From: Trichopria drosophilae
Lineage: Eukaryota > Arthropoda > Insecta > Hymenoptera > Diapriidae
DNA length: 64,000 bases
Assembly (NCBI GenBank): GCA_030407085.1
Contig: CM059587.1
Coordinates: forward strand, 43,126,501 to 43,190,500
Reading direction: 5' to 3'
Both the position numbers and the translations under genes were made by a program. Position 1 is the stretch's first letter; each line of letters opens with the position of its first letter. Of the stretch, positions 4,872 through 60,270 are shown piece by piece. The notes under the pieces are model-generated. The model was not told the DNA's origin and did no database searches. It saw only the letters and a program-made list of their open reading frames with translations.

Positions 4872-7113
4872 TTAGTAAATTTTCTTACCGTCAGATTTTC
4901 GATGAAAACTTTCAAATATGCTATCTACTGCAATTCGTGATCGATGACTGATCGCTCCAGCCGATAAACATCTGTTGTATATTTTTCCTATCTCGCGATT
5001 TATTTGTTCGTTATGAATTTCTTGAAATATCGTCTCGCACTTTATATACAGATCACGGAAATTAGTCTTCAATTGATTATTATAATTCAAGATCCCACGC
5101 GTCTGATTTCTTTGTATTTCGCCGATGGTCATTCCTTTCGCGATGCACATGTCGAGGGGAAGAAGATGCTTATGATTATTGTACTCATCGGCTGTGTAAA
5201 CATCCAATTCATCACAGGAGATAAATGAACTGATGTCGACGTCTGCAGCAGTTTGCCCTGCATTTAATAAATATTAGTTAGATAAATACAAACGTTTAAG
5301 GCATAAATTGTGTTGGTAAGTTAAATTAAATTAATATTGTGTACTTTATATATAAAACTTTTGTAAAATGTCACATCAAAATTAAATGTTGCCTTGTTTT
5401 TAAATATATTGTTTAATATAATTCACTTCTTGATAAAAAAAAAATTTAAATAGTTTAAACAAATTTTTTTCTAGATTGAATGATGAAATAAATGCAATCA
5501 TTTTACTTGGAGGCAATATGGTGTCATCTATTTTCTTTCTCAGTTCTGGAGATATGGCATTAGCGTCGAGACACCGTTCGTAGACTTTTTGCAGGAAGTG
5601 AAGCGATTTCCATTCAATAGGTTCACTTTTAAAAAAATCCTCGCACTTTACATACAGCCCCTTCTTCCAAGCATAATTCGGACGATGTTTCCCGTTGCCG
5701 TTTCTTTTTAGAACTTCGTCACTGAGCAAATATTGTCGCCAAGTGTCCTGTAAATCTTTAGTTCTGTTAACAATATAAAAGTGGTATGGGTTTTGTAATA
5801 TTAACAAATCCCTGATTTCAATAACACTTCTGGGATCAACACTCAGCTCTTCGAATATCCAGTCTCCTTTCCAGAACACGTATGTGTTGTTTTTTACCCT
5901 CACGCACTTTTCCCGATTTTTATTTTCGTCCGTTACGCGATCGTGAGATTCGTTACGTTGTTGGTACAACTTTGAAATTCTTTGGTCCTCGTTGATCATA
6001 TTTCGAAATTCTGCAAACACATCGTCGGCAATATTTTTGTCATTTTCCAACATCTCTTGGACGCGTGATTTTTTGTCGTAGATTAATAGTAGGGGGCTCT
6101 CGTAGCTCTTTTCGGCGTCGATCTCCGTCCACTTAACTGTCATATGCATATATAAGTCGTCTTCGAGTTTATCAAAATCGAACAATTTGTCGTAGTGCAT
6201 TAACGCCCCGGCAGTAGTTCCGTTGTATAGTAATTTCTGAGTTTTTCCTTCACCACTATAAAATGCTACGTACACTTGCACTTCATTTAAATTGAGATAC
6301 TCCGGTAGGTCGGGAAATTTCTCGTATTTTTTCCCGAATCTATTCTTTGTTGTAGGTGAAATGCTTCGACCATACCTATTTTTATCGTCTTCCGTCCTGG
6401 AATCCAAATTTGTTTTACCGTCACTTGAAGCGCTGAGGTTAGGCGTCAAATCATTTATATTTTTTAAAGTTCTCAAGACTGCCTGCTCCCACGCTTCCGT
6501 CATCGCATTCCAATTATCCTTTACGCACTTCACATCCAAATCTTGACACATTGAGCCATCTTGAAAATTGTTTAAAATATTTTTAAAATACTCATCTTCT
6601 CCGACAGAGCGCCGTAACCGCAGCTTGAGACCACCTTCAAACTGTGCATCTTCCGAGACGTTAGCATTACGTCTTTCTATGATCGTCAGTTCAATTAAAT
6701 AAATTCTCCAAAAAACGTAGGAGCCGAGCAAACAGAGAGTTATCAAAAATGACAAAGTACACAACTTTGCTGTTACTCGTGCGCATGTGTTATTCCTTTC
6801 TTTGTACACTTCATATATATTTCCGTTGAGTGGTGTTTGGAGTCTCTCCTCTACGGACGATTTATCCGACGACATCCCTGAAGCACAGAAATTGCACATT
6901 TATTGGTAACAAAGTAAATCTATTGTTACGATGACAGTGTGATATTCAATCAGCAATGATTAAGAAGAAAAGCATTATAAATATAGAAAATGATGCGTAA
7001 TGTTTATATAATCACATGCCAGTATAAGCAAAGTTCCTGATTAGAATTTCATCTATATTCAAACAATATGCAGGAAAATAAAATCTACCGTTTTTTTTCC
7101 ATGAATCCTTCAT
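4872..7113 (-). CDS. Locus 1: type II membrane protein with cysteine modules (B-A), about 593 aa
   Basis: I do not recognise this gene. Read on the minus strand it has three coding exons: 7113-7089 (25 nt, starts MKDSWKKN), 6877-5507 and 5257-4872. Both introns have GT/AG ends and are in phase 1, and the exons sum to 1782 nt (593 aa plus stop). Residues 1-46 are a polar N-terminus and about 47-65 form one hydrophobic segment, predicting type II topology. A furin-type site, R-L-R-R followed by S (cut after about residue 98), comes next. The end of exon 2 is a B module with C420 and C444. Exon 3 is an A module with C480, C503, C539 and C562, ending A-G-A-I-S. The ATG further upstream in the exon 2 frame is intronic: a 'cttcag' acceptor precedes the exon. 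A GTAAG donor at 4888 could allow another 3' end, but the next AG is only 28 nt on, too short for an intron, so the stop at 4872 is preferred. Confidence 0.75.
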
Positions 7114-7973
7114 CTTGCACTGCTCTTTGATAACTGACGCCGATTTAAACGAGTCTTGAGTTTCGTCGCTGAAACGAATTTCCTTCTCTACACCGATGCG
7201 CTGGTATTCGCGATCAGAAACAACGAGATGTCACGAGGTCACGCTGCTTTAAGTAGTGTATGCAGATTTCCGCATACAGTACAAAGCTTTCAGTAACGAA
7301 TCTATGAAGTTCCTGCCAAATTAATTCGATTTCATTAAAATATAATTAAATCCACGGAAGCATTTAAATTATCATTCGGATGCTCTGTAACAATGTTTTA
7401 TTATTAGTTGCAGTCTAACATTTTAGAAACTGATGTAATATTTCCTTTCTTGGAAACGTGAATGTTAGTTTGGACCAACGTTATTAAATACTTATTTAAT
7501 AAAGCGATAAATGCTGAATTACTCTCCAACAAATTTTCGTGTTATATTCATACTACTCTATTGTAATAGAGCTGAGAAAATGTTTAAAGTAAATATTAGT
7601 AATAAATTTTAAACTTTGTTGAAAAATGTATAGGAAACTTCTGTCAGTTGGTTTAAGCTTTCGACCAATTCCGTCAACAAAATTATCATTTTCTTGACAT
7701 TGATATATTTCTATAAATTTGGTTTTTAGAGTTCAATTTTACACGATATGTCGAAATATTTGATTATACATACGTAAATGTTGAAAAACAATGAGTCATA
7801 CATATGCATTAATTGATGAAACCGACATTATCCTCGCAATTTTAATCAATTATAAATTTTCTGTTTAGTCGGTGAAATTCTCTGTATGAATCAGTTTACT
7901 ATTTATTCGGTGACCTCTCTGGAAGCCACTGCTCTGTTTGGAAGTAAGAGTGTGCGTTATTTGCTCATGTATA
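7114..7973. other. Upstream flank of locus 1
   Basis: This is probably the promoter and 5' UTR of locus 1 (minus strand). A moderately GC-richer patch at about 7110-7260 has no clear TATA box. The rest is AT-rich and no gene is visible. Confidence 0.4.
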
Positions 7974-8228: not shown

Positions 8229-8230
8229 TA

Positions 8231-11380: not shown

Positions 11381-11384
11381 TGAG

Positions 11385-12830: not shown

Positions 12831-12838
12831 AAATCCTT

Positions 12839-13998: not shown

Positions 13999-16900
13999 CT
14001 ATGTAAATGTAACAATAAACCGTTTAGAGTTGTCTTCTGCGTAGTTCATTAAGCAAGTACTTAATAGATCGAATGGAAGGAAAATGGGTATCGTCGATGA
14101 TAGCAGATCATTACACGATACGAAAAGTCTATCCATATCTTGGTCGATTAGCCAGCCTTCGCCTACAAGTTGCCATTCTAGTAACATTATCTGACCCAAT
14201 GTGACGCCTATATTTCTGCAGAGACTTTGAAAGGTATCAGGTAAATCTTCGCAGTTTACAAGCAAATTTGAAATTTTTATAGTAAAATTGAAATTCGGGT
14301 GTTTGGTAAGTACATCATGGAACTCCTTGGTAGACACTAGAAAGATAATATCATTGTATGACATCTGTAACATTCATAAAATTCCCTACTAGCTATTGGT
14401 TAAACTACACAATCAATCAGACAAATAATTTTCGTATGTAAATAAGAACTTTGTTCAAGGATGGCGCCGAAAACCGTTTTTAAACAGGTTTTGTATATTT
14501 AATGCTTCTGCATCAAATAATTAAATTATAAAAATTGACCTACCTTTAACTACATCGAATATTCTGTGAAATTTCGTTTCAATAATAGATCGTTTATCTT
14601 TGTTTAAGGCACCTGCTACGACACATTGTTCATATTCGTGCAACAAATCGGCGGTAAACATGTTCAAATTTTCATCGAAAGCATCTTCACAATGCAAGAA
14701 ACGTTCTTTTAGTTTAGGAACTTGCTTCATATTTTTATGATTGCTTCGTTTGATCCCCATAACAATTTCAGCCGAAGACACTCCGTATCTTTCACATCTT
14801 TCCACTGCTGTCCACGAAGGGTTTATATACTTTTCATTAACAACAACAGTTCTAAAATGTTCACATCGGACGTATCTTTGCCAAATGTTAGTATCTTTTT
14901 CGTCGTTTTTAGACTTCATTTGTTGTACTGTATTCTTTCCTGCATCTGCGAATTCATGTTCATTCAATGTTGGCTTTTCAGCGCTATGTGTTTTATAAGA
15001 ATCGCTATTTGCAATATGCTGGTCTGTAAACTTAGTTGTACGTTCATAATTTTCCACCTTAATATCATGCGGCATCTTTTCGTCATTGGTGCCAGATATT
15101 GCCTTGTCACTAAAGTGTTTATTTTGCTTGTCAAATATTTTTTGCATATCTTCTAAAGTAAGATGATATTTCTGTGCAATTGTATTAAGCAATACGTCAA
15201 CATCGATCGACGACTCATTCATAATGGACGCGCTAAATCTGGCGCGGTTAACAATATTTTCATGCGATACAATGATAAAAATAATTGCAATTCCGATTAA
15301 TAACATGCAAGCACTAAATATCCCCAAGATCCATTTGCAACAGTTGCAGCTACGTCGATTGGATATATAATGAGCAGTTATGGGTATTTTATCTTCTTGC
15401 GTCCCCTGCATTTTTTCTGACCAATCTACAAGTAAATATACGTGTATTAATTTATTCAAGAACGTTTTATATTTAAGATAGCTTTTTTAGATTTCTCATT
15501 GTAGGTACAGCAAAATACTGCTTCCATGAAGGCTAGTGTTTAAAATCTTACTGATATACTGATTAAGTATCGTTATGTAATTAATTTTTATACGTCATTA
15601 AATCTGTTTTAGATTTGAGCAGCATGTTGGTACTTAACATGAAATGAACAGGACGTCATAATGTTTGTCAAGTGAGACGTTGCTTTAACTCATTAGTTGA
15701 CAGAAAAACGGAATTATTACGTTAATTATTCAAACAACTTAAGGATTACTTTTTCGAGATTTATTAATAGAGTTAGATATAATGAGTACATAAAGATATT
15801 GTACGGTCAAAGAGCTGAAGTTTTAAAAATTATAATATTATATAATTAAAATAAATCGATATTTCGTCTGTTGGCTGAGCAACTCTTTTCAAAAGTAATT
15901 TATTTCAATTTAATTGAAGTTAACTTCGTATAAAATTTTGAAATCCCAAAAGCATAAATTATAATTTAATAATGTAATAAGTTTGTAAACAAACATAAAA
16001 CGTTATTATTTTTAATAAAAAATAATAGATTTCTACATTTTCATAAAAGAAGATATATCAAACAATTTTTCGGCATATTTTAAAGTAGTAGGTATAGAGA
16101 AGGGTGGCTGCGAATAAAACTGGTGCGGGTCGAAATACCGACAAATCAAAAAACTGACAATCGAAAAATTAGGCACATCGACAAGCAGACAGTCCTTTTT
16201 GAAAGTGTCGGTTGCCGGTTTTTTGACTGTCAGTTTTTTCACCTGTCGGCTTTTTGATTTATCGGGTTTTCAACCCGCTCCCATAAAACTAACACGGAAC
16301 TTCTATTGGAATTGTGATTTATTTATTTAATTTCTATTACTATATTAATGACTCCTGAGCACCAGTTTTTCTTGTCCCATGTAAGCGAACAAAATGTAGT
16401 TCGGACAAATATATTCGTCGTGGTGCACAGGAGGGTTAATTTTTTTAATTTACTTGATTGTATTAAATAATTACAGATAACATGAAGGATATGTTATAAA
16501 AAATTCATCTTTTTTAACGACAAACCATATTCAACATTTTTAAGCTAAATTTCTGGGATGGTTTTCTTGGAATTAACGTAAGTATATATTTCATCAAGAG
16601 ATAATATTAATTTTAAGGTCTCAGTTATTGGAATGTACTCAAAACTTTCATGAATTCCCTGTATCGGTGTATTTAATTTGTATAATAAATTACTAATTTC
16701 AAATTTACTTAAAAGCATCTTAACATCTAGATCTCATAAAATAATATTCTTTTTTTCTGTGAAATTTAATAGTTCATATTCAAAGTATTGAGGCATGTTT
16801 GAAGTTAAGGCACTTTCACTTTTTATAACTCTGCTTATAGCTGTCACTGTAAGCGGAGTGACAAAATCTCACTCCCTTTGGAGTCAATTTTGTGTATATG

Positions 16901-17972
16901 CTTCTTCTTTTCCATTTATGTTTCTTTTATGTTCTATGCTATAACGTATATGTACTTCACGATATTTTGACTATGTACTGTGTAATGTTAGTCTATAATT
17001 AAACCGTTCACAGACATGATCTTTTAATAACTTGTTGTGAAACTTATCATCGATCGAGATTCGAAATGTCAAAAAATGCATTGCTTGAGGTTCTATTTAC
17101 TTTTTAAACACAGAGGCAAGATTGCCAACAGATATTGGCATCAAGGTAGAAAAACACGAAACGTACATATTGAAGCAACGTATTTGTATTATGACGAGAG
17201 TCGAAATAAAATACGAAATTTTATCATTGGATGCTAAGTTTTTACTTAAAAGAAAAAATAATTTTATTTTATTCTATGATTAATTATTACTGTCAACGTT
17301 TAGGTTATTATTTGATAGGTGTGCGATAAAGCCTGTTAAAAACTCATTTCAAGTTTCAATTCAGTGTTCACACCATATTTTATTTATTGTTTACAAAGAA
17401 CTCTGAATATAAACGTAAACAGTACAGATCCTTTCGTGTGATTTTATTTGTAACATTGAATTCAGACTTAGTCAAAACAAAAGAAAATTATTAAAAAATT
17501 GTATTAAATAAAGATCAATATCTAGAGAAATCATGTGGTAACGTAATCATGCCGTGTACGATAAAAATCCAAAACGTTGTTTGTTAAGAAAAATAATCGT
17601 TAATATACATTTTTTTATTTTTTTAAACCGAGTACAATGTCAGCATATGTGGCAGAACAAATTAATATTTAAAATAGAATATTTATTATTTATTAGAAAA
17701 AAGAATATTTTGATAGGCATTAATAGGAATATTTGTTAAACTTAAATATATTCTTGCTGTACAAAATATATAACCGTAGTACAAGCTGACACAAAATAAA
17801 TACAAAATATGCTTTACAAATTTATTTTTATTGTAATTTGGTAAACATATTGTTTACTAAGAAAACAATTAAAATAATTCTCAAACTAATCTATACTTAG
17901 TTACATACCTAAAGGTTTTTTTGGAGACTCCATTATGTTGGCTGTCTTTGTTGTAACTAAATCTAACTTCAT
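13999..17972 (-). CDS. Locus 2: type II membrane protein with cysteine modules (A-A'), 414-427 aa
   Basis: Unrecognised member of the same family. Exons on the minus strand are 17972-17909 (or from ATG at 17933), 15425-14544 and 14336-13999. The donors are GTATGT and GTAGGT, the acceptors end 'ttgtag' and 'tttctag', and all junctions are in phase 1. The total is 1245 nt from the inner ATG or 1284 nt from the upstream in-frame ATG. By the inner start, residues 40-61 form the membrane segment, preceded by a cytosolic Cys cluster (C-N-C-C). A long polar stalk follows. The end of exon 2 is a four-cysteine A module: C-x22-C, then Y-G-V-S, then F-L-H-C-E-D and E-Q-C-V-V-A-G-A-L. Exon 3 is a variant A' with a short C-x10-C spacing and N-I-G-V-T. 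The first intron is about 2.5 kb, so exon 1 is assigned by phase, donor strength and family resemblance only. Confidence 0.65.
16122..16282. mobile_element. hAT-like foldback MITE with 8-bp duplication
   Basis: The 161-bp element lies between two copies of ATAAAACT (16114-16121 and 16283-16290). It is almost entirely palindromic: 'gcgggtcgaaataccgacaa' at the left is matched by 'gggttttcaacccgc' at the right, with internal repeats of a CTGTCGG/TTTTTTGA motif. It sits in the first intron of locus 2 and has no coding capacity. Confidence 0.7.
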
Positions 17973-23303: not shown

Positions 23304-26300
23304 CTATGGGATTTGTGCCGTCACTGTAAATCGAGGCGTAACTCCTTGTATAAATTGCGGTTGTGGATTTATAAAACTATTTAACAAGCATCCGTAGTAC
23401 TCCTTCAATGGAAAAACAGTAAACGCATCCAAATGGTTGCCAGCAAAAATGTCGTTACACGCTAAGTATAGGTCACTAAGATCTTCAGTAATCAGCCACT
23501 TATCGTCTACAACATTCCAAATTAATGTTGTTATTTGCTTGATAGTAACTCCAATATTTTTGCACAGTTTCCTAACTTCTAGTGATGCATTTTTACATTG
23601 TACCAAATTATTTGTTATCGTCATTACAGGTGTCTTATTTCCGTGTGAGGTAATGTGTTTAACTTCCGATTTCCCATCTGTAATATTAAATCATAACTTT
23701 TCACGTATAATGTAATTATAAATGCGAAATACTACTTACGTTGTATTATCGAAAATAATTTCTGAAATTTATTTTCAATGATGTTTCTTAATGTATTATT
23801 TAATGCATTACTTTTTTTACATAATGCATAATCGTTAAGCAATTGACTGGTAAATCTATCCAAATTATCGTTAAAAACATCTGCGCAATGCACATAAGTA
23901 TTCTCTAATTTTCGTGTATTTGTTTCTTTGATAGTGCGTTTGCTAATTACTCCATTCTGTATATTATTCCTCGTAATTCCATCTTTCCAACATAAGTGCA
24001 GTGCATTCGGAGACGGAGATATGCGCGCAGAGTTCACGGAGATGAATTTCAAATGTTCGCACGGGACGAAAGAAAGAATTTTCATATGTTTCTTAGCTCT
24101 ATTTTTCTCCGACATTTGTTGATATGCATTTAGCTTATGTGGTTGTTCAACGGGACTTAATGTCTGGGAGTTTTTAACCGCTTGGTTAATTTCGTGTTTG
24201 CCGTGTGGAACAGTATTAGTGCTGATATTAGATTCGTTCGGCTTTATACCATGCAGGCGAAGTTCGTATTCTGTAGAAGTATTTAATTTACTATCAATTT
24301 GCACCGGAGGTTTGTTGACAGCATTTGTATTAATTAATCCAGCGGCATGATATTCAGTTGGTTTAAATAGTTCTTCAGCTGGTTGATGGTGTTTGTTGGC
24401 CACTTTATGACTAGATTCATTATATGTATAATCTTTTTGTAAAATAAATAATAAAATTGGATCATTGTCTTGCACCTCCAGATTTTGGGGAGAAGTCTTT
24501 TTCATGTTATTTGAACTTGTTGAAGTTTGCCTTATTTTAGCTGGCCTTGTATGATCAGAATATAGTGGCAATGTTTTGTTGTCTTTTGATTTTAGCAAGC
24601 CAAATATTTCATTCAACATTTTATATGAACGGTAACTCTCGTCACTTCTAACTGCATTATCGGTATCACTAGTCACCTGTGCGGTATCTCTTATAAATTT
24701 ATTGAGGTTGGCGTTTACTTCTTCAATTGTAGACAAATCTTTAGCTAGTTTATCTAAAGATTGATTAATTTTCAAATTAAGGCTTTTTAAATCTTCCGTT
24801 ATCATCTGATACGCTTCGTGATTTGATGTCCAGATATTTGCATTGTGTCTTGCAATATACCAAATTCCAATAACTGCAAATGTAATAAAGACAACGGTAG
24901 CTCCAGCTTTTTTCATGTTATTATTGACTTGAAAATTATCCTTATGTTGAGTTTCTAGTGATGTCAAATTTACTTCACTTGTTTCATTTTCTTTAACTGC
25001 AGAAATATCAGAGGTCCCATCTGCAAAGTAAATAAAATTATATTCGAAACAAACCGATTTCGTTACAATTATATTTATTTCTTAAAAATCATGCGAAACG
25101 TACATTGCTAAAAATAACTATTGCATGGATAAGATATAGATGTTTAGAATTATTACTTGCATAATGAGATGCAGACCACATAAGTTTAGTAGGTGGTTTT
25201 GTTATTTCATAAGTGAAATTAATATTGTATGACGCCTGATTGAGTTTAAGACGAGGGGGGCAGCAAAGCGTTCTAGGGCATCAAATAAAGGAAGATTCAA
25301 ATTACGAAACTTTTAAGAAAGTATATTTTGGACAGCAATATGATCTGTCAGCTGCTGTTAATTTTTCATATGATTGGACCATTTAAAAAGAAAGAAAACG
25401 CTCTCAGAAAACTGTAATATCAGTTACAACATTTAGTTAGATATGCCCCAACAAGAACAAATCGTGTAATACAAATAGGAATTTATACTGCTGTAGTTTA
25501 CAGAGAGGAAAGAAAACAGTAAATGGAATGATTTTATGAAAATAGCGCACGGATTACAAAAAATTGTTAAAGTAATTATTACTAAACCAGTTGTATTGTT
25601 TCGTTTACAATTACCTAGTACTTTAATATCCATCACATTGCAAAACCTCAAATATACTAGTATTACGATTTAACAATCACTTTAAATATTTCTGAGTAAC
25701 AGATTAAACGAAAATAACCTGCTGTAAGAATAAAAATAGTAAACGACATTTTTCGCGTTGTTAATTTTACTGTTATTACGTGATACAACCACTTCTACCT
25801 TTTTCCAAGGTTGCATTAACTATTTTTTTCTTTCTGAATGTTATTAAACATTACGTGTAGCAACATTACTATATACTGTTGTTGTGGCATAATTAACTAC
25901 TTTGGTAATATGATTCGACTTATTATAGTATAATTCATTCAACATTAAATAGTCGTGAAGTGTAATATTCCCCAAATGTTATATTAAGAGTTTTAAATAT
26001 TTTTTCTACGGTACATTTCGGTAGTTAGATAAGAAATTTTACATTTGTGATTAGAACGTTCAGCTACATATTTAGTGTCAAAATATTTTTGTATTTTTGT
26101 TTTATTGGCCACTTAATATTTTGTTGCTTATACTTTCGAAAAGAAATAAGAAGCGAAAATGGAATTTTGACCTCTTTTATTAAAACGGACAAGTTTTAAG
26201 TAAATGAATAGTAACTGCGTTAGCTAATTAAAAAGTACTGACAATGCATAGTCGACTGAAACATAGCCTTTTCCGAAGTTTACATTTTACGCATTCTTTC

Positions 26301-26370
26301 TAAATTATACGCTAAAAATTAATAACATACCTGAATTGGTCTTCAAACTTTCCTTCTTGTCGATCTTCAT
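23304..26370 (-). CDS. Locus 3: type II membrane protein with cysteine modules (A-A'), 564 aa
   Basis: Unrecognised family member, closest in layout to locus 2. Exons are 26370-26331 (40 nt, MKIDKKESLKTNS), 25020-23740 and 23677-23304. The introns are 1310 bp and 62 bp, both phase 1 with GTATGT and GTAAGT donors, and the exons sum to 1695 nt. About 50 polar residues precede the membrane segment (about 52-70). A predicted coiled-coil stretch follows (about 75-120, leucine/isoleucine heptads), then a long N/S/T/K-rich stalk. The end of exon 2 is an A module: C-x22-C, D-G-I-T, then Y-V-H-C-A-D and Y-A-L-C. Exon 3 is an A' module: C-x10-C, N-I-G-V-T, then L-Y-L-A-C-N-D and Y-Y-G-C. Exon 2 opens after a 'ctttgcag' acceptor, upstream of any internal methionine. 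No furin-type site is seen. Confidence 0.75.
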
Positions 26371-29209: not shown

Positions 29210-30183
29210 TTACACGAGCGGCGAAGGTGATAAATCAATTTTTAATCCATAAATTACATTCAATTGTTCTTCTCTTGAAGATTCAGAAATATAAATCATT
29301 GATAAAATGTATCCCATTAAGACTATGATGACCACTAATCCGATCACAACCAAAACTATCGTAGAGAAAAATTCCGTTTTTGAACTTTCATTGGATAGGA
29401 ACTCGGGGTGAATCGGTATTTTTTCACCTTCCTCCGTCAAACTTAATACTTTATCTATAGACACAAAACTCATATTGTATGTTTATAAAACAATAGAGTT
29501 TACATAAAGGTGATTGTATTAAATAATGACGTTGTTTTTAATGTTAGTATATCTATCACGCTCGTAAATTATTTTGTTTACGCCTTATTTTAAGATTTCA
29601 ATATATTATGAAATTATTTCACTCGTTTGAATGTTTGACTGACTTCAATTAAATAATTTGTATTATATATTGTGTATTCATACTTAGCATAAGATATTCT
29701 TAAACAAAATATATGAAAAAAATAATAATGTAAAGAATGTAACTGTATGAGACATACATGAATTATCTGGAAGCTGACCGAATCAGTTATACTTCTAGGT
29801 GATTCAAGCATGTGCATACCTGATACTGACATACAATTTTTCCTTTGCAGCTATAACTCATTGTAGTATATGCGTATTTCTTACGAGAAATTGATTATCA
29901 TTTTACGTCTTTCATATTATGCAACAATTGCTTACAAATCAAATACATGACCGCTTTAAAATCCGAATTACATTTTGATTATAATATACTTTTCGATATG
30001 TTAAGAAATCTATTAAGTATTGGATATAAAAATTAATTTTCTTGTTTAATGCGTATTACTTAATAAAAATGAAATCTATCTGAAAATACTAGGAAAAAAT
30101 AATGCTTTCATTTTGTACACTTAAATAAATAATGAATTTATATAAATATTCCTACCATAACTATACTTCCATGGCTCCTTCAT
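29210..30183 (-). CDS. Locus 4: short single-pass membrane protein, 90 aa, truncated family member
   Basis: Exons are 30183-30156 (28 nt, MKEPWKYSY, GTAGG donor) and 29454-29210, with a phase 1 intron of 701 bp. The sum is 273 nt, 90 aa plus stop. It keeps the family signature of an MK-x-x-x-K micro-exon, a short acidic cytosolic stretch and one strong hydrophobic segment (about residues 40-62, valine/isoleucine-rich). It ends about 28 residues after the membrane with no cysteine module. It may be a relic that lost its ectodomain exons, or a real stub. Without the micro-exon the second exon alone would start at an ATG at 29473, but that lies upstream of the acceptor ('gtctatag'). Confidence 0.55.
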
Positions 30184-36996: not shown

Positions 36997-39900
36997 GGAC
37001 ATCTTTTGCCAGCCATTATGAATTTAGAAATTTTGACCTCACATGCGTAATCCACAACCTTGAAAACGTAGGGATACAAATTTTTCCGCATGTCGAGAAA
37101 CAACTTCCAAAGTTTCTCATACATAGCCGCCATATTGGGTCAACCATTTGAATTTCGAAATTTTTACTTCCAATTCGTAATCAGCATACCAAAAATATCT
37201 TAGATAGATAGATAGTTTAGTTGAAAATTTGTTTAAATGCTATAAATCCATACTGCCAAATTTTACAAAAATCCCTTGGAATAAGGGATAGCCGCCATTT
37301 TGGATATTTCAAGGTGAAATAAATGACTACCTGCATATCCTTGAAGTTCGAACATTTTATGCACTTTCTATGCAATTTTCCGGTCATAGAAATCACAGTA
37401 TCGACATGAAAAATGAAATTTAAAGAAAAAAAAAACATTACCCTCAAAAATGTGTTTTTTCACATACTTTTGCCAAATTAAAGGAAAATACTCAATTTTT
37501 TTCCAATTTGGAAGTCATTATTCGAAAGAGCAACCTCGAAAACAGTAAATAAGGTACGTTAAACAGGTTATATTATCCGTTTGTTTCACTCTGTTCGGAG
37601 TTCGGCTAAATAACGTGATGTACTTCGAAACTGTTATATGAATCCATATTTCAACAATATCTGCTTTTATTTCCTGTATTATGCCTTGATTTCAGAAAAA
37701 AACGTGTTAATGGAAATTTGAAATTCGCTTTGGTGTTCGTCTGTAGTTTAGGTATTTAAATCCCGAATTGTAAACATTTCTGAATAGATTCCAAGTAATA
37801 CATCGTAATCGTTTCGTGAAATTAAATTAAAGTAAAAAATTATACGTGACAGTGTAAATTTCCTACTACGTATATTTTACCACAGACTTGACATCTCAGA
37901 ATATACATAAATTTTATCGCCTCAACAATATCAAAACGGAAATTCAAGGTATTTCGTGCTTCGTCTTTAAAATGCAAAGTCCAGATTGTAGTAGTACTTT
38001 CATATTAGTTATAAACTGTACCATATACTTCAAAGAAATTTTGCAATAATATTTCTGACGATCGGTGTACAATTATCGGAACATTTATCTTTCTTTATAT
38101 GATCCAATATTTAAAATTTTAATTTGTATAACTGGACAATTTAGACAATTACTTTAGTACGGGCAACATAATTTGTGCAGATTTTTTATGTTCGCAATAA
38201 ATACATCTGTACTATTATTTGATCCTCTTGCAAATTTAATTACTGCAAACAAATTTTGCTGTCTGGAAGATTATCGGCTTGTTCAGCGCATTTTCAAATT
38301 TTGATCAAAAAGGACATTTTAACACTATTAACAGAATGTCACGCTGCAAGGGAGAAAAGCGAGCAATTTCAACAAGCTAAAAAATTAATTTAGCTATTAA
38401 AAACAGAAAGGGAGAAAAGTGGTTAGGATGCTCCCCTCGTTCTTTACGTCCTGAGTTCCAATCCTCGTTCGGCAACTTTTTCTATTTTTGTTCCACAGTG
38501 GACAAATCAGGAAACCTTAAGCAAAGATAGGAATTTAGAACTGTGTTGATTATGTGCAGTATTTGGAATTTGTTTATTTCTTTATGTCGTCCTGTGAGGG
38601 ATGATTATTTATAGACTTGTTCCATTAGCCATAGTTGACACAAGGTTGCCAAGTAAATCTGGCCAATGTATGTAAATATGTGTACGTAAAAGAAATAGGA
38701 CATCTAGATAGGACAAAATAACTCCGCTATTACTTTATTACATTTAAGACTAGATGTGTAAACTAACAAGGGGTTGTTCCAGAAGTATTTTAAAAAATAT
38801 TTTAAGTATTGTATAATTTTATTGTTTTTTTTACATTTATCAGAAGTACAGTCGTATATACTTTACAAAATGTTAATAACAAATATATCCCTTGCTTAAG
38901 TCCTTCTTAACATATATACAATCGTATTATCCGTCGGAATAAAACTGAAATATGCCGAATTTTTTAATAGATCTCAAATTACCTGATATTATCCGGATAT
39001 CAAATGCGGTTTTATAAATATACATAGTAAAATTCCTGTATTCAAGAATTCCACAATTTGGATTCAATAGCTAATTGTGCGCTTTTACTGATTGCACCAG
39101 CTGCTTTTACTTTCTCGTAAATTTTTCGCATTTTATCCGTGGCCTGTTCGGAATTAATTTGAGTGAATAAAATTTCACCGTGGATATATATATCGTCAAA
39201 GTTGAAATAAGGAGACATCTCTTCGTATAAGCTATTGTTGCCTTTCTTAAGGCCGGACCAAATGTCATTTTTGCTTAGAGCATTTTGATAACAAATATCA
39301 AATGGATGATGATTACTTGCTCGGATCCAAGCTGGATCAGATTCGGAGTAAGAATCTAAATCTGTACAGACAACCCACTGTTCTATTTTTTTTCGTTTTT
39401 GTTCCTGTTCTTGTTTGTATTTTTCATATTCTTTTTCATATTCTTCTTTTTGTTTTTCATATTCTTCATTTTCTTCTTCATATTCTTCATTTTCTTCTTC
39501 AGCAGTTAAATAATCAGCTGTTAACAACAAAGAAAAATTAGTTATGTTACATTATTTAGTTATTTCAGCTGAATATAAAATAAGTATAGTACGTACGTAA
39601 GATAGATCCTCCCAAGGTGGAATCTTCGTCCTCTTCTGTAAACATTGCAATAAAATTAATTTGATTCCGAGTATATGATTTAAAAAATATTTTGAAATAT
39701 TTCAGTGTATGTTTTTACTAATTATGATACGTACTCCATTCAGCGTTCCGGGCTGCAATTTCCTCAATCGTAGTTAGCAAATGTCGACTAATAGCTCCTG
39801 CATTTAGACACCGCTTCCAAATTTTTTGGAAGTAGTGAAGAGATTTCCATTGCTCATCTTCATGGAAAAAGAACTCATTGCACGTTATATACACACCACG

Positions 39901-42813
39901 AAATGGCATATACCCCTTATTATTGAGAGACTCTTTAAAAGCTTCATCTTCCGTTTTTCTGCCTAAGGTAGCATCTGACAGATAATTCCTAAATAAATTT
40001 TCGACATGTTTGTGCTGTAAAGCGTATAAGAGATAAGGAGATTCATGTAATAGAGTAGAAAACTCAACAAGTTGGTTCGGATTAATAGCTATTTTTTCCT
40101 TGTTTCCCAGACTATTAGAGAACACGAACGATTGGTTTTCAAACATAGCTTCAATATTCGATTGAACAGATTTGTCTATGGCCCCGAAATTCTTAAACTT
40201 GTCATAAATTGACTTCATTTTTTTTGTTGCGTACTTGAAATGGATGTTAGAAAATAGAACGTCAGCGTCAATGTATAAGCTGTCAATATCAACGAGAAGA
40301 GCAGTTACTCCACGTTCCGAAAAAATGCTTCTTTCAGCCTTCGTTATATTTTTATTGAAATCATCGATGGTTATGCCATATTTGTAACAAATGTCCAATG
40401 GATGGTAACCGGTGGCATTGACCCAAGAAGAATCAGATTCTGAGTAAGAATCTAAAGCTGTACATTTAATGAGCCGTCCAAAATAGATGTCCGATGACAG
40501 TTCGTCTATTATAATTAAAAGAAGATCAGTTAGATTTTATTATTAAATTAAGCTATTTCAATAGTAGAAAATAAGAGCACAATATACGTACTAGTTGGGG
40601 GATTTATAAGTGTACGGAATTTTTCTTGTAGCTCTTCGGTAATGGCTCCTGCTTTTTGGCAACGATTGAATATTTTTTGGAAATAATCAAGCTTGGTCCA
40701 CTGTACAGTTTCGTTTTTGAAGAAGTCTTCACACCTTATGTAAATTCCTCTCAACTCATCTGAAGACGTTCTACCCAAGATATCATCCGACAGATAATTC
40801 TTAAATATTTTAGAAACACGCCATTCTTGTGCTGAATAACTCAAATAAGGTGATTCCAGTGTTAGGGTGTGAAATTCAACAAGACCATTTGGATCAATCG
40901 AGATTTCCTCCTCTTTTCCAAACTTATTAACAAACATGTAGGTAGATCGCTTCTGTTTTCTCGGATAATATTGATAAGCATTATTATCATTTTTGAGATT
41001 TTCAGTTTTCTCAGTTTCCGTTGACCTTAGGGACCGTAGCTTAAGAGATTCTTCTAGCTGCATTTTGTGCAATACCGGATTATCCGAGCGTATGTGGTAT
41101 GTTTTAGTGAAAAGGATGGAATAGAGAGTGCAAAATAATATTCCAGACATGGTGATAACACATATTGCTAAAATAACTTTCGTTAAAGTAGACAACTCCG
41201 ATTTTCGTTGCACAGGCGGCAAGAGAAGCTCATTCAGGTCACGCCTTCCTCCATCCATATTTGACCACATGATTCCTATAAAAGATATTATTTTAAAATA
41301 CGATTATTGCAATATATGTCAGGGAAATTAATTTTGAGTTTAAAACAATTTATACGGAAACAATCTTAGATATGACGCTAATTAACCTCAGTGGTTATCT
41401 TAACAACTGACAATGAATACATTTTCATGATTGGGGTAAAATAATTTAAATACTATTTTTTTAAATATATAACTTTTTGTTGAACTTGTTTTAAAAAATG
41501 TATTATTCTCAGACCCTACAAACTACATCTTCTTTATAACTTTAAAAAATACAAGAAGTTTTTTAAATCTTTCATGTCATTGGGCTAAGCATATCGATTT
41601 CATAACTTTTCTTAATATTTATTAAATTATAATGTTTCTGTTATATTCAATTGGCAATAATCATGCAACTTTATCATGGATCTTATGTACAAAACACACG
41701 TTTCTATTATATACTGCGATCGCCCAAATGTTGAGAATCTAGTTGCTTCGATAAATGTGACAAAGTTTCTACTTTCCGGTTAACAGTTTCCGTACTAATA
41801 TTCAGTATTCGCTATTGAAATAGGAATATGGCATTGATACTAATCGTAATTTCATATTGTAAAACTATGCATGTTTAATAACTTGTATTGTACTACTATT
41901 TATAAAAGTGTGAATATATTAACCAAACTATTCTGATATTTTCCCGTAATAAATATCGAAATATACAGTTATGAATATAAGGTAATTTATAAATAAATAT
42001 TAAATAAATAGATATAATTAATAAAAACAATAAAAATAAATATAATATACATAATTGTATATACACTATATTTTATATAAAAATTTATGTTTGATTTGGT
42101 ATCATTGAAAATAGCTTTTTCCAAACCTCAGAATAAACCAAATATGTACAACTGTTCATTAAATAATGGAAACAATCATGAAATTTTAATTATCATTTAT
42201 AACAGAATATTAAATTATCCCTCATTTGACTGAACAGCAATAATGAAGTTTTTAATTCAAAATATAGTCTATTGATGATTTTTAACAATTTAATTTGGTC
42301 ATCCAAGGATATTTTAGTCTAAGTCTGAACAAACTTACCTTCGCTGACTTGTTTCCGATGGTCCGCCATATTAAACGGAGGTTTTGGAATCCTCGCACTT
42401 CTGCTCTACTCCTACTTTTGATCGAGTCTAATCTGAATTTTATTCTGTCGACCGAAATATACCGCAAAATAGATGCCAAGCCTTGAATATCCCCTCCAAT
42501 TTTTTGATAATGTATAACAGAATGGCAGATAGTAATGAACCGATGTGTCCTCCACTCCAAATCACAAAGGTTTTTTATTAATGACTGCTTAATTAATTGG
42601 GCCACCAATTTTATATTTAATGTAATTATCAATTCCTATTTTTATATTTAAGCTTATTAACAATTTCGAAGAAAGATATGCAAAATAATATTAATGTTGT
42701 ATATTAGTTAGGTTTTAATTTTAGTTATAACACATTTAAAGTTTATTATTCACAACAACGATACGTTGAAATCACCATGATGTATGCATACATTTAATAA
42801 TGGCGTACCGTAA
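36997..42813. repeat. Segmental duplication, copy A
   Basis: This stretch aligns with 54684-60712 in the same orientation along its whole length, starting at 'ggacatc-tttgcc' and ending near 'ggcgt-ccgta'. Copy A carries gene A. About 39860-42430 is almost identical to copy B, while both flanks differ at a few percent. Copy A lacks the two insertions found in copy B. Confidence 0.9.
39042..42369 (-). CDS. Gene A: type II membrane protein with B-A-B-A cysteine modules and acidic linker, 666 aa
   Basis: Unrecognised gene, read as five exons: 42369-42339 (MADHRKQVSE), 41275-40592, 40505-39735, 39635-39597 (39 nt) and 39517-39042. All four introns are phase 1 and the exons sum to 2001 nt. The membrane segment is at about residues 44-65. 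R-S-L-R before S95 fits the minimal convertase motif R-x-x-R and aligns with locus 1's site; R-K-Q-K-R before S121 is a second basic site. Exon 2 is a B module (C192, C216). Exon 3 is an A module (C253, C278; the C3/C4 pair is lost) plus a B module (C447, C471). Exon 4 is a 13-residue acidic linker. Exon 5 opens with an E/Y/K-rich predicted coiled coil (about 514-550), then an A module (C559, C584; C3/C4 again lost) ending in the stop. The open frames starting at internal methionines of exons 2 and 3 are partial readings of this gene. Confidence 0.8.
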
Positions 42814-46935: not shown

Positions 46936-46949
46936 AAAAAAAAATGTTA

Positions 46950-47098: not shown

Positions 47099-47112
47099 GT
47101 TATCTAGTTTCT

Positions 47113-51324: not shown

Positions 51325-51560
51325 TGTTTCTTCCTTTCCGTGTACGCGGGGCGAAAGTTGTCTTTCTGCGTTCTGCGTGCCCGTGCGCATGCGCACTTCG
51401 TTCTCATTACTCCCGTGGGACGTAAAGTGCTGCCCGCGGGAGTAATGGATGCGGCCAGGAAAAAACTAGCGTATGCTTCCCGAGAGGAATGCGCGTGCAC
51501 CTAGTGAGAGCGCTGCCCTCGCTTCGTTCGCGTAGCAAACATTCCACTCGGGGATCACAC
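51325..51560. other. GC-rich block with CATTACTCCCG hairpin
   Basis: The block is clearly more GC-rich than its surroundings. It contains 'cattactcccg' facing 'cgggagtaatg' around a short loop (about 51397-51445). It replaces the sequence expected in the right inverted arm, so it is inserted or joined DNA of other origin. No RNA gene or protein was recognised. Confidence 0.45.
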
Positions 51561-52296
51561 TCTTTCCTCCCTTAAAGCATAATATACTATTTTTTACACA
51601 CAACCAAATCCATGATTATTTTTCAGATAATTTCCTTTGTAGCGGCTAGAAAACACATTACAAGAATAATATAAAGTCAAAGAAAAACGAACATTTCGTA
51701 GTGGTGGGATTGAATAGTATTTTTAAAATAAAATACGTTTAGTATTATTTATCAGATGTGATGTGAATTCTGGAGACGTCGAATTTTGGGTATTTTTTAC
51801 TTTCGCTTTTTGTCGACTACAGCATCACCTGTGAACCACAATGTAATAGCTCCTAGGTCAAGTTGGTGTCCTTTTTTCCAGAGAATCCAAATTCTGCAAT
51901 AAAAAATGGAGGTTCCTATTTAAGTTTTATTGTTTTTCCCCCACCCCATTTCCAGGAGGTGGGGAAGGGGGTCAATTTCATTATTACTGGATGCCCCCCT
52001 TCGTGTCGAACAACTTTCATCTCACGCCTTTTTTGATTCTGTGCATAGTTCTCGAGGTATTTCAATTTCTTCAGATAAATTTGAATTTTTATCGATTACA
52101 GCGCCACCTGTGAACCAAAATGCAACAGCTCCAAGGTCAAATTGTTGTAAGTTTTTCCGGAGAATCCAAATCTGCAATAAAAATATGGTGGTTCCTATTT
52201 AAGTTTTATTGTTTTTCCCCCACCCCACCCCCAGGGGGTCAATTTCATTATTACTGGATCCCCTCCTTCGTGTCGAACAACTTTCATTTCTGTATA

Positions 52297-52977
52297 CAGG
52301 GTGGCCGATTTATCTGAAGACATAGAAATATCTCGAGAACTAAGTACAGAATCAAAAAAGGTGTGGGATGAAAGTTGTTCGACACGAAGGGGGGCATCCA
52401 GTGATAATTAAATTTACCCCCTCCCCCATCCCCTGGAGGTGGAGTGGGGGCAAAAACAATAAAACTTAAATAGGAACCCCCATTTTTTATTGCAGATTTG
52501 GATTCTCCGGAAAAAAGTACACGAATTTGACCTAGGAGCTATTGCATTTTGGTTCACAGGTGGCACTGTAATCGATAAAAATCTAAATTTATCCGAAGAC
52601 ATTGAAATACCTCGAGAACTATGCACAGAATCAAAAAAGTTGTCGGATGAAAGTTGTTCGACACGAAGGGGGGCATCCAGTAATAATGAAATTTACCCCC
52701 TCCCCCATCCCCTGGGGGTGGAGTGGGGGCAAAAACAATAAAACTTAAATAGGAACCCCCAGTTTTTATTGCAGATTTGGATTCTCCAATATTGACAATT
52801 TTCGCCCGCGTAGCGGATATGGAATACGGTCATTCTAACAAAGCCGGGAAAAAATACATTTAATTATCACTGGATGCCCCCCTTCGTGTCGAACAACTTT
52901 TATCTGACAACTTTTTTGATTCTGTGCATAGTTCTCGAGACATTTCGATGTCTTCAGATAAATCGGCCACCCTGTAT
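52297..52977. mobile_element. Deletion derivative with complete mariner-type ends
   Basis: Both ends are present: 'tacagggtggccgatttatc' at the left and its reverse complement at the right, within TATA. Inside are two forward copies and one reversed copy of the 250-bp module. A short piece ('gaatacggtcattctaacaa') also found at about 51060 joins directly to the reversed module at about 52855. It looks like an internally deleted copy of the larger element. Confidence 0.7.
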
Positions 52978-53379: not shown

Positions 53380-54683
53380 TCAGTTGATAACCCGACTTGC
53401 TTCATTTGCAAGAAGAAAGGACACATCACATAAAATGCCTTACTATACAGAAAAAGCAACCGCGGGAAACACAGAATTACTCTGTACTCAGTCCTTAATA
53501 ACATCGCAAATGAAAGGTACTTCAAACACAGACACCACAAAAGATGTAAATGTTGACTTACACAATAAGAACCTAGAATATACATAGTTAGAAGAATCAC
53601 CAAAGGAAATCACAAACACAACGTGTAATAAACGTCCTATGTCGTTCTACAGCTCGACGGAAACTTCGTATAAGGCGAAAATGGAATACCAACACAGCTC
53701 TAACGATGAAAATAACTAAACAGCGTCTTTAGGCAATGTAAAAACAAAAAAAAAGAAATCGAAATTAAACACTTCTGAGAAAACGAAGGTTCTGGACTTC
53801 AATACGGTCCTCAAACCAATTGAAGACTTTGATGTACACAGAGACAGATATAAGATCACCAGAAGTAAATTGAAAGAATTTATAATAAAATCATATGAGA
53901 ACAATAATGTTTATGATTTGGCAAAAGATCAAACAAATGCGGTAGCATAACTGTTAAAACTGCTAAAGGACATTTACATCCTATTTCAAGAGCGCACCAT
54001 AAAAAACCGTATCACAAGAATAAATAAGAAACTAGAAAATCGATGGACGCGTGACGTGGAAGGAGAACTTGGATTCCAGTCCTCCAGTATACAAGTAGAT
54101 AGCGAATATCCAGCTAATTCTAGATCAGTGAAAATTAAAACATGTACAAGTGGAGTGACTTAAAAATAGTGTTCCTGAATGCTAGAAGCATTCAAATCAT
54201 ATTTATAACTGTGGAAACGTGGCTCAAGCCGGGCATCACCTTCAAACATCCTAGTTTTACAGGCGCCAGGCTATAAAGCAGATAGACCTGGAGGGAGTAT
54301 TCTTATGATAATAAAAAACAACATTCAGTTTCAAAAACTGAACCGACAATGTAACGACCTCCCTAGAAACTAACGCAGTGAAATTAACAAATATTAACCT
54401 AAATGTAAATATTACTCCATGCTATCTTGCTCCGAATACCAATCCAAACCAAACGGAATAGGATGATTTATCCAGCAGAACCGTAAATAATGAACCACGT
54501 TTAATTGTTGGGGATTTTAGCACGCATAGCATTGTTTGGAACTGCCGAAAGGAAGATGTACTGGGCAAAAGACTGCTGGAATCAATTAGAACTTAAGACC
54601 TATTCCTTCACAATCCAAACTCATCAACTTATGTACACTCTCACACTGAAAAACAAATTTTCCACCAAACTTATCAACACCAG
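53380..54683 (+). pseudogene. Jockey-like LINE fragment: ORF1 end and ORF2 endonuclease
   Basis: Plus-strand frames show a decayed zinc knuckle at about 53396-53440 (C-F-I-C-K-K-K-G-H). A basic ORF1 tail lies at about 53780-54050. A start-like V-F-L-N-A-R-S-I near 54165 matches the first strand of the EEP endonuclease. The later endonuclease blocks include N-G or G-D-F-S-x-H near 54510 and V-W-N-C-R-K. Many stops and shifts are present. It ends where duplicated copy B begins. Confidence 0.65.
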
Positions 54684-56904: not shown

Positions 56905-59900
56905 TCACGAATTCCACAATTTGGATTCAATCGCTAATTGTGCGCTTTTACTGACTGCACCGGCTGCTTTTACTTTCTCGTAAATTTTTCGCATTTTATC
57001 CGTGGCCTGTTCGGAATTAATTTGAGTGAATAAAACTTCACCATGGATATACATATTGGCAAAGCTGGAAAAAGGAGACATCTCTTCGTATAAGCTATTG
57101 TTGCCTTTCTTAAGGCCGGACCAAATGTCATTTTTGCTTAGAGCATTTTGATAACAAATATCAAATGGATGATGATTACTTGCTCGGATCCAAGCTGGAT
57201 CAGATTCGGAGTAAGAATCTAAATCTGTACAGACCACCCACTTGTCGTAAATGACTTTTTCAGTCAAATGGTCCGTACGTAAGAATGGTCTACCCCTGCC
57301 GGAATTTATCATCTTGTCTGTAAACATTACAATAAAATTAATTTGATCCCGAGTATATGGTTTAATAGTATTTTATGCAACAAGGGCGAAATTTTCGATC
57401 TTCGACAAGTGTGAAGTTTGTCGCTCGAGCGGAGCGAGGGTGACAATCACAATCGACGGAGATCGATATTTCGCCCATGTTCCATACGATATTTTTTAAT
57501 ACTACGTGCGTAGAGCGCAATTTTACGTACATGAAAATTTCGTCCTAGTGCGTAAAATCGTGTTTTACGCAGGGAGTGTTAAAAAAGATATTTTGAAATA
57601 TTTCAGTGTATGTTTTTACTAATTATGATACGTACTCCTTTTAGCGTTCCGGGCTACACGTTCCTCAATCATATTTAGCAAATGTCGACTAATAGCTCCT
57701 GCATTTAGACACCGCTTCCAAATTTTTTGCAAGTAGTGAAGAGATCGCCATTGCTCATCTTCATGGAAAAAGAACTCATTGCACGTTATATACACACCAC
57801 GAAATGGCATATACCCCTTATTATTGAGAGACTCTTTAAAAGCTTCATCTTCCGTTTTTCTGCCTAAGGTAGCATCTGACAGATAATTCCTAAATAAATT
57901 TTCGACATGTTTGTGCTGTAAAGCGTATAAGAGATAAGGAGATTCATGTAATAGAGTAGAAAACTCAACAAGTTGGTTCGGATTAATAGCTATTTTTTCC
58001 TTGTTTCCCAGACTATTAGAGAACACGAACGATTGGTTTTCAAACATAGCTTCAATATTCGATTGAACAGATTTGTCTATGGCCCCGAAATTCTTAAACT
58101 TGTCATAAATTGACTTCATTTTTTTTGTTGCGTACTTGAAATGGATGTTAGAAAATAGAACGTCAGCGTCAATGTATAAGCTGTCAATATCAACGAGAAG
58201 TGCAGTTACTCCACGTTCCGAAAAAATGCTTCTTTCAGCCTTCGTTATATTTTTATTGAAATCATCGATGGTTATGCCATATTTGTAACAAATGTCCAAT
58301 GGATGGTAACCGGTGGCATTGACCCAAGAAGAATCAGATTCTGAGTAAGAATCTAAAGCTGTACATTTAATGAGCCGTCCAAAATAGATGTCCGATGACA
58401 GTTCGTCTATTATAATTAAAAGAAGATCAGTTAGATTTTATTATTAAATTAAGCTATTTCAATAGTAGAAAATAAGAGCACAATATACGTACTAGTTGGG
58501 GGATTTATAAGTGTACGGAATTTTTCTTGTAGCTCTTCGGTAATGGCTCCTGCTTTTTGGCAACGATTGAATATTTTTTGGAAATAATCAAGCTTGGTCC
58601 ACTGTACAGTTTCGTTTTTGAAGAAGTCTTCACACCTTATGTAAATTCCTCTCAACTCATCTGAAGACGTTCTACCCAAGATATCATCCGACAGATAATT
58701 CTTAAATATTTTAGAAACACGCCATTCTTGTGCTGAATAACTCAAATAAGGTGATTCCAGTGTTAGGGTGTGAAATTCAACAAGACCATTTGGATCAATC
58801 GAGATTTCCTCCTCTTTTCCAAACTTATTAACAAACATGTAGGTAGATCGCTTCTGTTTTCTCGGATAATATTGATAAGCATTATTATCATTTTTGAGAT
58901 TTTCAGTTTTCTCAGTTTCCGTTGACCTTAGGGACCGTAGCTTAAGAGATTCTTCTAGCTGCATTTTGTGCAATACCGGATTATCCGAGCGTATGTGGTA
59001 TGTTTTAGTGAAAAGGATGGAATAGAGAGTGCAAAATAATATTCCAGACATGGTGATAACACATATTGCTAAAATAACTTTCGTTAAAGTAGACAACTCC
59101 GATTTTCGTTGCACAGGCGGCAAGAGAAGCTCATTCAGGTCACGCCTTCCTCCATCCATATTTGACCACATGATTCCTATAAAAGATATTATTTTAAAAT
59201 ACGATTATTGCAATATATGTCAGGGAAATTAATTTTGAGTTTAAAACAATTTATACGGAAACAATCTTAGATATGACGCTAATTAACCTCAGTGGTTATC
59301 TTAACAACTGACAATGAATACATTTTCATGATTGGGGTAAAATAATTTAAATACTATTTTTTTAAATATATAACTTTTTGTTGAACTTGTTTTAAAAAAT
59401 GTATTATTCTCAGACCCTACAAACTACATCTTCTTTATAACTTTAAAAAATACAAGAAGTTTTTTAAATCTTTCATGTCATTGGGCTAAGCATATCGATT
59501 TCATAACTTTTCTTAATATTTATTAAATTATAATGTTTCTGTTATATTCAATTGGCAATAATCATGCAACTTTATCATGGATCTTATGTACAAAACACAC
59601 GTTTCTATTATATACTGCGATCGCCCAAATGTTGAGAATCTAGTTGCTTCGATAAATGTGACAAAGTTTCTACTTTCCGGTTAACAGTTTCCGTACTAAT
59701 ATTCAGTATTCGCTATTGAAATAGGAATATGGCATTGATACTAATCGTAATTTCATATTGTAAAACTATGCATGTTTAATAACTTGTATTGTACTACTAT
59801 TTATAAAAGTGTGAATATATTAACCAAACTATTCTGATATTTTCCCGTAATAAATATCGAAATATACAGTTATGAATATAAGGTAATTTATAAATAAATA

Positions 59901-60270
59901 TTAAATAAATAGATATAATTAATAAAAACAATAAAAATAAATATAATATACATAATTGTATATACACTATATTTTATATAAAAATTTATGTTTGATTTGG
60001 TATCATTGAAAATAGCTTTTTCCAAACCTCAGAATAAACCAAATATGTACAACTGTTCATTAAATAATGGAAACAATCATGAAATTTTAATTATCATTTA
60101 TAACAGAATATTAAATTATCCCTCATTTGACTGAACAGCAATAATGAAGTTTTTAATTCAAAATATAGTCTATTGATGATTTTTAACAATTTAATTTGGT
60201 CATCCAAGGATATTTTAGTCTAAGTCTGAACAAACTTACCTTCGCTGACTTGTTTCCGATGGTCCGCCAT
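56905..60270 (-). CDS. Gene B: type II membrane protein with B-A-B-A cysteine modules, 632 aa
   Basis: Paralogue of gene A on the second copy. Exons are 60270-60240, 59176-58493, 58406-57636 and 57317-56905, all phase 1, total 1899 nt. Exons 1 and 2 encode the same protein as gene A, and exon 3 differs only near its end (for example R-S-L-H-Y-L for K-S-L-H-Y-F). Membrane segment, convertase-type R-x-x-R site and modules are as in gene A. The last exon differs. It opens at the acceptor used by gene A's 39-nt exon and reads straight into the A module through a basic stretch (S-G-R-G-R-P), so the acidic coiled-coil linker and one intron are absent. The last intron is lengthened by an insertion of about 214 bp. 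Start and splice choices rest on phase and on identity with gene A. Confidence 0.8.
57366..57579. mobile_element. Insertion in gene B's last intron
   Basis: Copy A lacks this segment. The left and right flanks both show TTAA next to the insert, but no CCC-type piggyBac terminus is seen. Inside, 'gggcgaaattttcgatcttc' faces 'gagatcgatatttcgccc', and 'gcgtaaaatcgtgttttacgc' forms a small palindrome. It is related in vocabulary to the insertion at 56009. Confidence 0.6.

What the first reader, a model, noticed from the sequence alone, without database searches (positions are those of the whole stretch)
4872..60270. Unrecognised tandem gene family with phase 1 micro-exon architecture
Six minus-strand loci share one plan: a first exon of 25-64 nt encoding an N-terminus often starting MK, a phase 1 intron, an exon with one membrane segment, then phase 1 exons of cysteine modules. 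In all six the hand-built exons sum to a multiple of three (1782, 1245, 1695, 273, 2001 and 1899 nt), which would be unlikely if the splice choices were wrong. I recognise no known domain, so this may be a lineage-specific surface or secreted family.
Basis: partly seen in the sequence, partly recalled or inferred. Interest (0 to 1): 0.9.

Follow-up and report, generated by a model that had tools for sequence, protein, structure and literature searches.

The report
Tandem membrane proteins with unknown module
A single-strand cluster of related insect-type genes appears to encode membrane-anchored proteins built from a repeated four-cysteine module that matched no protein family held here; the gene family looks real, but what it does is not known.

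Summary
The gene family is real and larger than reported. I rebuilt all six minus-strand models; the exon sums agree (G2 by its shorter start). Five of the six (G1, G2, G3, G5, G6) carry a homologous four-cysteine module; G4 has only the membrane exon. G5/G6 are a duplicate pair partly homogenised by gene conversion. The array continues on the same strand to about 191 kb in window coordinates: 14 membrane exons in all, eight of them outside the window, with nine further modules. Three whole-genome searches of the 936-Mb assembly matched only this cluster.

Corrections: sums divisible by three are automatic for phase-1 joins and prove nothing. A phase-blind splice test supports phase 1 (19 of 21 acceptors, 12 of 14 donors). 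The 'micro' first exon is only the coding part of exon 1; a shared MK[DE]xW start supports it in five genes, two in the window.

Pfam, PDB and held-protein searches gave no convincing match; two AlphaFold models (pLDDT 82, 79) have no Foldseek PDB match below E 3. Best reading: membrane-anchored, partly shed recognition or ligand-binding proteins built from a new class 1-1 module. Function is inferred.

The parts
7089..7113 (-). G1 coding part of exon 1 (MKDSWKKN, 25 nt)
   Evidence: MK[DE]xW start shared by five genes of the cluster
5507..6877 (-). G1 exon 2: membrane segment, RLRR furin-like site, module A (two Cys)
4872..5257 (-). G1 exon 3: four-Cys module (G1_B); alternative donor at 4889 just before the stop
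   Evidence: AF2 model
17909..17972 (-). G2 candidate first exon (64 nt; inner ATG at 17933 gives 25 nt)
   Evidence: not supported by homology
14544..15425 (-). G2 exon 2: membrane segment, module G2_A
   Evidence: AF2
13999..14336 (-). G2 exon 3: module G2_B (weakest in the leave-one-out test, E 0.019)
26331..26370 (-). G3 candidate first exon (MKIDKKESLKTNS)
   Evidence: good donor, no homology support
23740..25020 (-). G3 exon 2: membrane segment, long stalk, module G3_A
23304..23677 (-). G3 exon 3: module G3_B
30156..30183 (-). G4 coding part of exon 1 (MKEPWKYSY)
   Evidence: shared MK[DE]xW start
29210..29454 (-). G4 exon 2: membrane segment only, no module found
42339..42369 (-). G5 candidate first exon (MADHRKQVSE), consensus donor
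40592..41275 (-). G5 exon 2: membrane segment, KQKR site, module A1
39735..40505 (-). G5 exon 3: modules B and A2
39597..39635 (-). G5 internal 39-nt exon, phase 1-1
   Evidence: splice sites only
39042..39517 (-). G5 last exon: acidic repeat and module C
60240..60270 (-). G6 candidate first exon, identical to that of G5
58493..59176 (-). G6 exon 2, identical to that of G5
57636..58406 (-). G6 exon 3: modules B and A2
56905..57317 (-). G6 last exon: module C without the acidic repeat
39847..42435 (.). gene-conversion tract shared with G6 (one mismatch, at 40300)

Best explanation
A single-locus tandem array of at least 14 genes, all on one strand, encodes membrane-anchored proteins. Each has a short cytoplasmic N-terminus, often with MK[DE]xW at the start and a PI motif further on, often a Cys-containing juxtamembrane stretch, and one transmembrane signal-anchor. 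Outside lies a stalk, mucin-like in two genes, and in seven genes two to six helix-rich modules, mostly with four cysteines, on phase 1-1 exons. Two disulfides, C1-C2 and C3-C4, hold a full module. Some members carry furin-like sites after the membrane and are probably shed. The modules bind variable partners (surface recognition, decoy or ligand capture), and the array diversifies by tandem duplication, module gain and gene conversion. Shown by sequence: the cluster, module homology, phase-1 splice sites, duplication and conversion. Inferred: topology, disulfides, shedding, recognition role.
For: Module profile and leave-one-gene-out tests; cluster extension and confinement to one locus; ATGAARGANNNNTGG occurs five times in 304 kb on both strands, all minus, all 180-728 nt before a membrane exon, against 0.31 expected; I wrote the pattern after four of the five had shown up in candidate lists; phase-blind splice test; one hydrophobic segment in the stretch examined, with more positive charge on the N side in 10 of 14; cysteines lost only as C1+C2 or C3+C4 pairs, two clades; furin-like sites after the membrane in G1, G5/G6 and T90; position-matched module pairs between neighbouring genes; conversion tract.
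Against: No expression data. Charge is tied in three genes and reversed in one of 14; N-glycosylation sequons are only somewhat denser outside (76 in 5233 residues, 32 of them in T191) than inside (5 in about 540). Seven of the 14 membrane exons (G4, T67, T76, T90, T94, T101, T191) have no detected module in or after them. pN/pS between G5 and G6 is 0.67, so no positive selection is shown.
Confidence: 0.5

Rival explanations
1. Structural surface or barrier glycoproteins (mucin-like coat of gut, cuticle or egg) whose modules only stabilise or cross-link; divergence is relaxed constraint, not recognition.
For: Mucin-like Ser/Thr-rich exons at 149298-151400 and 189428-191500; pN/pS below 1 in the G5/G6 comparison.
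Against: Only these two long mucin-like exons were seen among 14 genes (by eye), and modules keep a strict four-Cys plan in 14 of 19.
Confidence: 0.22
2. Effector proteins used against a plant or animal host, working like aphid bicycle proteins: fast evolving, phase-1 exons, small helical domains, delivered from a secretory gland.
For: All 14 introns of the window models phase 1, as nearly all internal bicycle exons are (PMC9168663, passages); helical disulfide module with no convincing database match.
Against: Large exons (up to a 2.6-kb ORF) rather than many micro-exons; a membrane anchor instead of a secretion signal; the models have short strands and no saposin match. The species' way of life is unknown.
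Confidence: 0.12
3. Tethered carriers of small hydrophobic ligands, working like odorant-binding proteins with four cysteines.
For: Helical, four Cys, spacing loosely like that of minus-C odorant-binding proteins (recalled).
Against: PF01395 is not among the families matched by exons or modules; the genome-wide PF01395 search lists one match, on C1, none in the cluster.
Confidence: 0.1
4. A decaying array: many copies are pseudogenes with little function.
For: G4 is 90 aa without modules; seven of 14 membrane exons have no module detected.
Against: Long open frames scoring high for codon use, on the minus strand (the table was trained on ten exons of this family, so partly circular); shared start motif, phase and Cys pairs.
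Confidence: 0.06

Closest known systems
Class 1-1 extracellular modules of animal modular proteins (exon-shuffling domains)
   Same: Module flanked by phase-1 introns at both ends, in the presumed extracellular part of membrane proteins, repeated in tandem (PMC8001218, passages)
   Different: The module matches no Pfam domain convincingly and is predicted helix-rich, whereas that paper says shuffled class 1-1 modules are mainly of the beta class
Aphid bicycle genes (PMC9168663, passages; PMC13041983, abstract and first part of Results)
   Same: Fast-evolving insect family, nearly all internal exons starting at codon position 2 (phase-1 introns), small helical domains, disulfide-bonded in one of the two solved structures, no sequence relatives
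   Different: Characterised bicycle genes have about 17 exons on average and a minimum of 5, many of them micro-exons; the one protein whose signal I read of has a secretion signal. Here 2 to 5 exons in the window models, mostly long, and a membrane anchor
Odorant-binding proteins, minus-C type (PF01395)
   Same: Insect, helical, four cysteines (recalled)
   Different: No profile match; membrane-anchored and multi-module
Type II surface receptor clusters such as the vertebrate NK complex (recalled, no call)
   Same: Tandem array of type II membrane proteins, recent duplicates, gene conversion
   Different: No C-type lectin profile match; function unknown

Membership tests
Class 1-1 module proteins | Domain boundaries marked by introns, all phase 1 | tested here: met
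   All 14 introns in six models phase 1; best-scoring sites phase 1 in 19 of 21 acceptors and 12 of 14 donors when phase is ignored. G5 exon 3 holds two modules in one exon
Class 1-1 module proteins | Same module in proteins of different architecture (shuffling) | tested here: inconclusive
   Module number differs between genes (2 to 6 where present), but whole-genome searches matched the module only in this cluster
Aphid bicycle genes | Internal introns phase 1 | tested here: met
   bicycle:
Aphid bicycle genes | Many micro-exons, mean about 17 exons, minimum 5 | tested here: not met
   2 to 5 exons in the window models; of 20 coding exons, 13 are 245-1371 nt
Aphid bicycle genes | Saposin-like fold | tested here: inconclusive
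   Two AF2 models without PDB match below E 3; no direct superposition on a saposin was possible
Aphid bicycle genes | N-terminal secretion signal | tested here: inconclusive
   Hydrophobic segment starts at residue 25-56 of the stretch used; no signal-peptide predictor on hand
Odorant-binding proteins (PF01395) | Profile match | tested here: not met
   Not among hits at E<=1 in exons and modules; genome-wide PF01395 search lists one match, on C1
Saposin B (Pfam) | Profile match | tested here: not met
   Not among hits of modules or exons scanned
Any family in Pfam, PDB or the held protein database | Significant similarity shared by the family | tested here: not met
   In one search one of 16 modules has a Pfam match at 1.2e-4 (Dynein_attach_N) and one at 0.0087 (zf-C3Hc3H), neither shared by a second module. 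Membrane exons T67 and T191 were not scanned

The most novel reading that the evidence does not exclude
An undescribed helix-rich class 1-1 extracellular module, and possibly a new fold, builds a single-locus, fast-diversifying set of membrane-anchored and shed recognition proteins: an insect counterpart of the vertebrate type II receptor clusters.
Probability: 0.2. Interest if true: 0.8.

Novelty: new variant of a known kind. Interest (0 to 1): 0.55.

Why it matters
Animal extracellular and transmembrane proteins made by exon shuffling come from a few dozen domain types, mainly beta-class (PMC8001218, passages). A further, helix-rich one confined to a single tandem array would be a clear case of a young extracellular module. 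Arrays like this one often sit at contacts with pathogens, mates or hosts (general knowledge, no call), so the cluster gives a concrete set of genes to test. Annotation by the family profiles searched here would miss it.

Tried and rejected
Rejected: divisibility by three as evidence, because any phase-1 chain from ATG to an in-frame stop sums to a multiple of three. Rejected: strong positive selection between G5 and G6. A first tally over exons 1-3 gave 10 nonsynonymous to 1 synonymous, but Nei-Gojobori over the end of exon 3 (from codon 307, much of it inside the conversion tract) plus module C gives pN/pS 0.67, and a binomial test p 0.82; the module C tally was in the wrong frame and was redone. 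Rejected: sequon distribution as proof of topology. My note says 12 of 14 for charge; the right count is 10 of 14. Internal symmetry of the module (first half like second half) was tested with hhalign: probability 5.9%, E and P 0.0064, so it stays an impression. BRO proteins recur among the viral fold matches (six of 14 rows), but all at E 3.4 or worse. No Rfam match in the window at gathering scores. Viral and prokaryote contig collections: pattern matches in two of three scans, none confirmed as a relative. The organism could not be named: mitochondrial-type ferrochelatase pieces in the left flank and one PF01395 match, with a stop inside, fit an insect but do not prove it.

Full report
What was checked. 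The six loci were rebuilt exon by exon on the minus strand. All 14 introns in these models are GT-AG and phase 1.

Is the divisibility argument sound? No. Any chain of phase-1 joins from an ATG to an in-frame stop sums to a multiple of three. I therefore asked, for 22 exon ORFs of the cluster, which splice site scores best when phase is ignored. It was phase 1 in 19 of 21 acceptors and 12 of 14 donors. By my count from that output, the exons outside the window give 10 of 12 acceptors and 7 of 9 donors. One acceptor and one donor miss are the two ends of the T94 join, which looks phase 0. The T166 acceptor was missed because the stretch searched stopped one base short; the same fault makes the T191 acceptor a chance hit. 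Two donors are ties, one counted for phase 1 and one against.

The module. A profile from ten window modules finds 12 exon ORFs at E<=1e-18 among 2034 window ORFs, nine of which hold training modules; the next ORF is at 0.84. With each gene left out in turn, 8 of 9 exons of the left-out genes are found at E<=5e-8 and one (last exon of G2) at 0.019; five shuffles of all 7060 ORFs of the larger stretch give a best E of 0.055. The consensus is roughly FVxCxxL..PS..C...GVT.......LYxxCxDxF....T..L...Y..CKxAGAxS......IE..F. Of 19 different modules, 14 have all four cysteines, three lack C1 and C2 together, two lack C3 and C4 together, none lacks one of a pair (the near-copy in G6 is left out). These five fall in two clades (supports 100/99 and 91/85), so they count as two events, and they suggest C1-C2 and C3-C4 bonds.

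The cluster. Flanks of 100 kb left and 140 kb right were read. To the left no ORF scores better than E 2 with the module profile. To the right, on the same strand, are gene H7 (six modules, window coordinates 146472-151812, membrane exon ORF 151942-152586), gene H8 (three modules, 162497-163834, membrane segment in the same 879-aa ORF as its first module, 163457-166093) and further membrane exons at 67530, 76569, 89927, 93524, 101272 and 189428. That makes 14 membrane exons, of which seven have modules in or after them (G1, G2, G3, G5, G6, H7, H8). Three whole-genome searches in the 936-Mb assembly, with the G5 exon (8 matches at E<=0.001), an H8 module (13 matches at E<=1) and the membrane exon at 76569 (2 matches at E<=1), listed only places in this cluster; the tool calls such counts lower bounds.

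First exons. The string ATGAARGANNNNTGG occurs five times in 304 kb on both strands. All five are on the minus strand and 180-728 nt before a membrane exon (G1, G4, T76, T101, T152), against 0.31 expected from a first-order Markov model. I wrote the pattern after G1, G4, T101 and T152 had come up in candidate lists; only T76 was new, so the expectation is a guide and not a clean test. The start MK[DE]xW still ties five genes together. For G2, G3 and G5/G6 the first exons have fair to perfect donors but no such support; candidates of that sort occur 61 times on the minus strand of the window. Because exon 1 should also hold the 5' leader, 'micro-exon' is not the right name. The 39-nt internal exon of G5 is one, by splice sites only.

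Membrane plan. By patterns written after looking at them, eight of 13 N-termini carry a PI motif before the membrane segment and eight an S..hW motif at its end. There is one hydrophobic segment in the stretch examined: whole models for G1-G6, the membrane ORF alone for the other eight. The N side is more positive in 10 of 14 cases, tied in three and reversed in one, which fits an N-in signal-anchor. Furin-like sites follow the membrane in G1 (RLRR), G5/G6 (KQKR) and T90 (RMRR); another (KDKR, in G2) is inside a module. Stalks include mucin-like repeats in H7 and T191.

Evolution. G5 and G6 are 98.75% identical over 3131 nt. From 39847 to 42435 they differ at one base, while the flanks differ by about 3 to 7%, so a gene-conversion tract covers exons 1-2 and most of exon 3. 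pN/pS over the end of exon 3 and module C is 0.67, which shows no positive selection. In the module tree, H7_f pairs with H8_c, H7_e with H8_b, G2_A with G3_A and G2_B with G3_B, each with support of at least 95/93; H7_d with H8_a only 80/79. Genes seem to have duplicated after their module arrays had formed.

What it most likely does. Phase 1-1 modules are the mark of shuffled animal extracellular domains (PMC8001218, passages read). Together with the anchor, stalks, possible shedding sites and recent duplication, this points to surface or shed proteins that bind partners. Which partners is open: immune, reproductive, host-directed or barrier roles all remain. Bicycle genes (PMC9168663, passages; PMC13041983, abstract and first part of Results) are the nearest precedent I saw in intron phase and lack of relatives, but the exon plan and the anchor differ.

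Noticed in passing
39847-42435 and its copy in G6 (about 57.7-60.3 kb): A 2.6-kb stretch with one mismatch between two copies whose flanks differ by about 3 to 7%: a gene-conversion tract.
   Followed up: yes
47327-48691 (-): DDE_Tnp_4 transposase ORF (Harbinger-type by recall), 454 aa, apparently open.
   Followed up: partly
62705-63846 (+): Pieces of a LINE-like element: reverse transcriptase and endonuclease ORFs; a near copy of 63421-63818 lies at 54257-54652.
   Followed up: no
44978-46947 and 49963-52784: Direct and inverted repeat copies, 76-95% alike, probably mobile elements, with a transposase-like ORF at 45583-45942 (by recall; no Pfam match).
   Followed up: no
4889 (-): Good phase-1 donor just before the stop of G1 exon 3; a further exon may exist downstream.
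   Followed up: no
L017 (window coordinates 149298-151400) and L029-L032 region (189428-191500): Long mucin-like Ser/Thr-rich exons, the second with near-identical internal repeats.
   Followed up: partly
L023-L024 region (about 43 to 59 kb left of the window): Ferrochelatase exons and a methyltransferase-domain ORF lie left of the cluster.
   Followed up: partly
93096-93440 (window coordinates, right flank, -): Open exon after the T94 membrane exon with no module similarity and a best acceptor in phase 0: some members may carry another kind of ectodomain.
   Followed up: no
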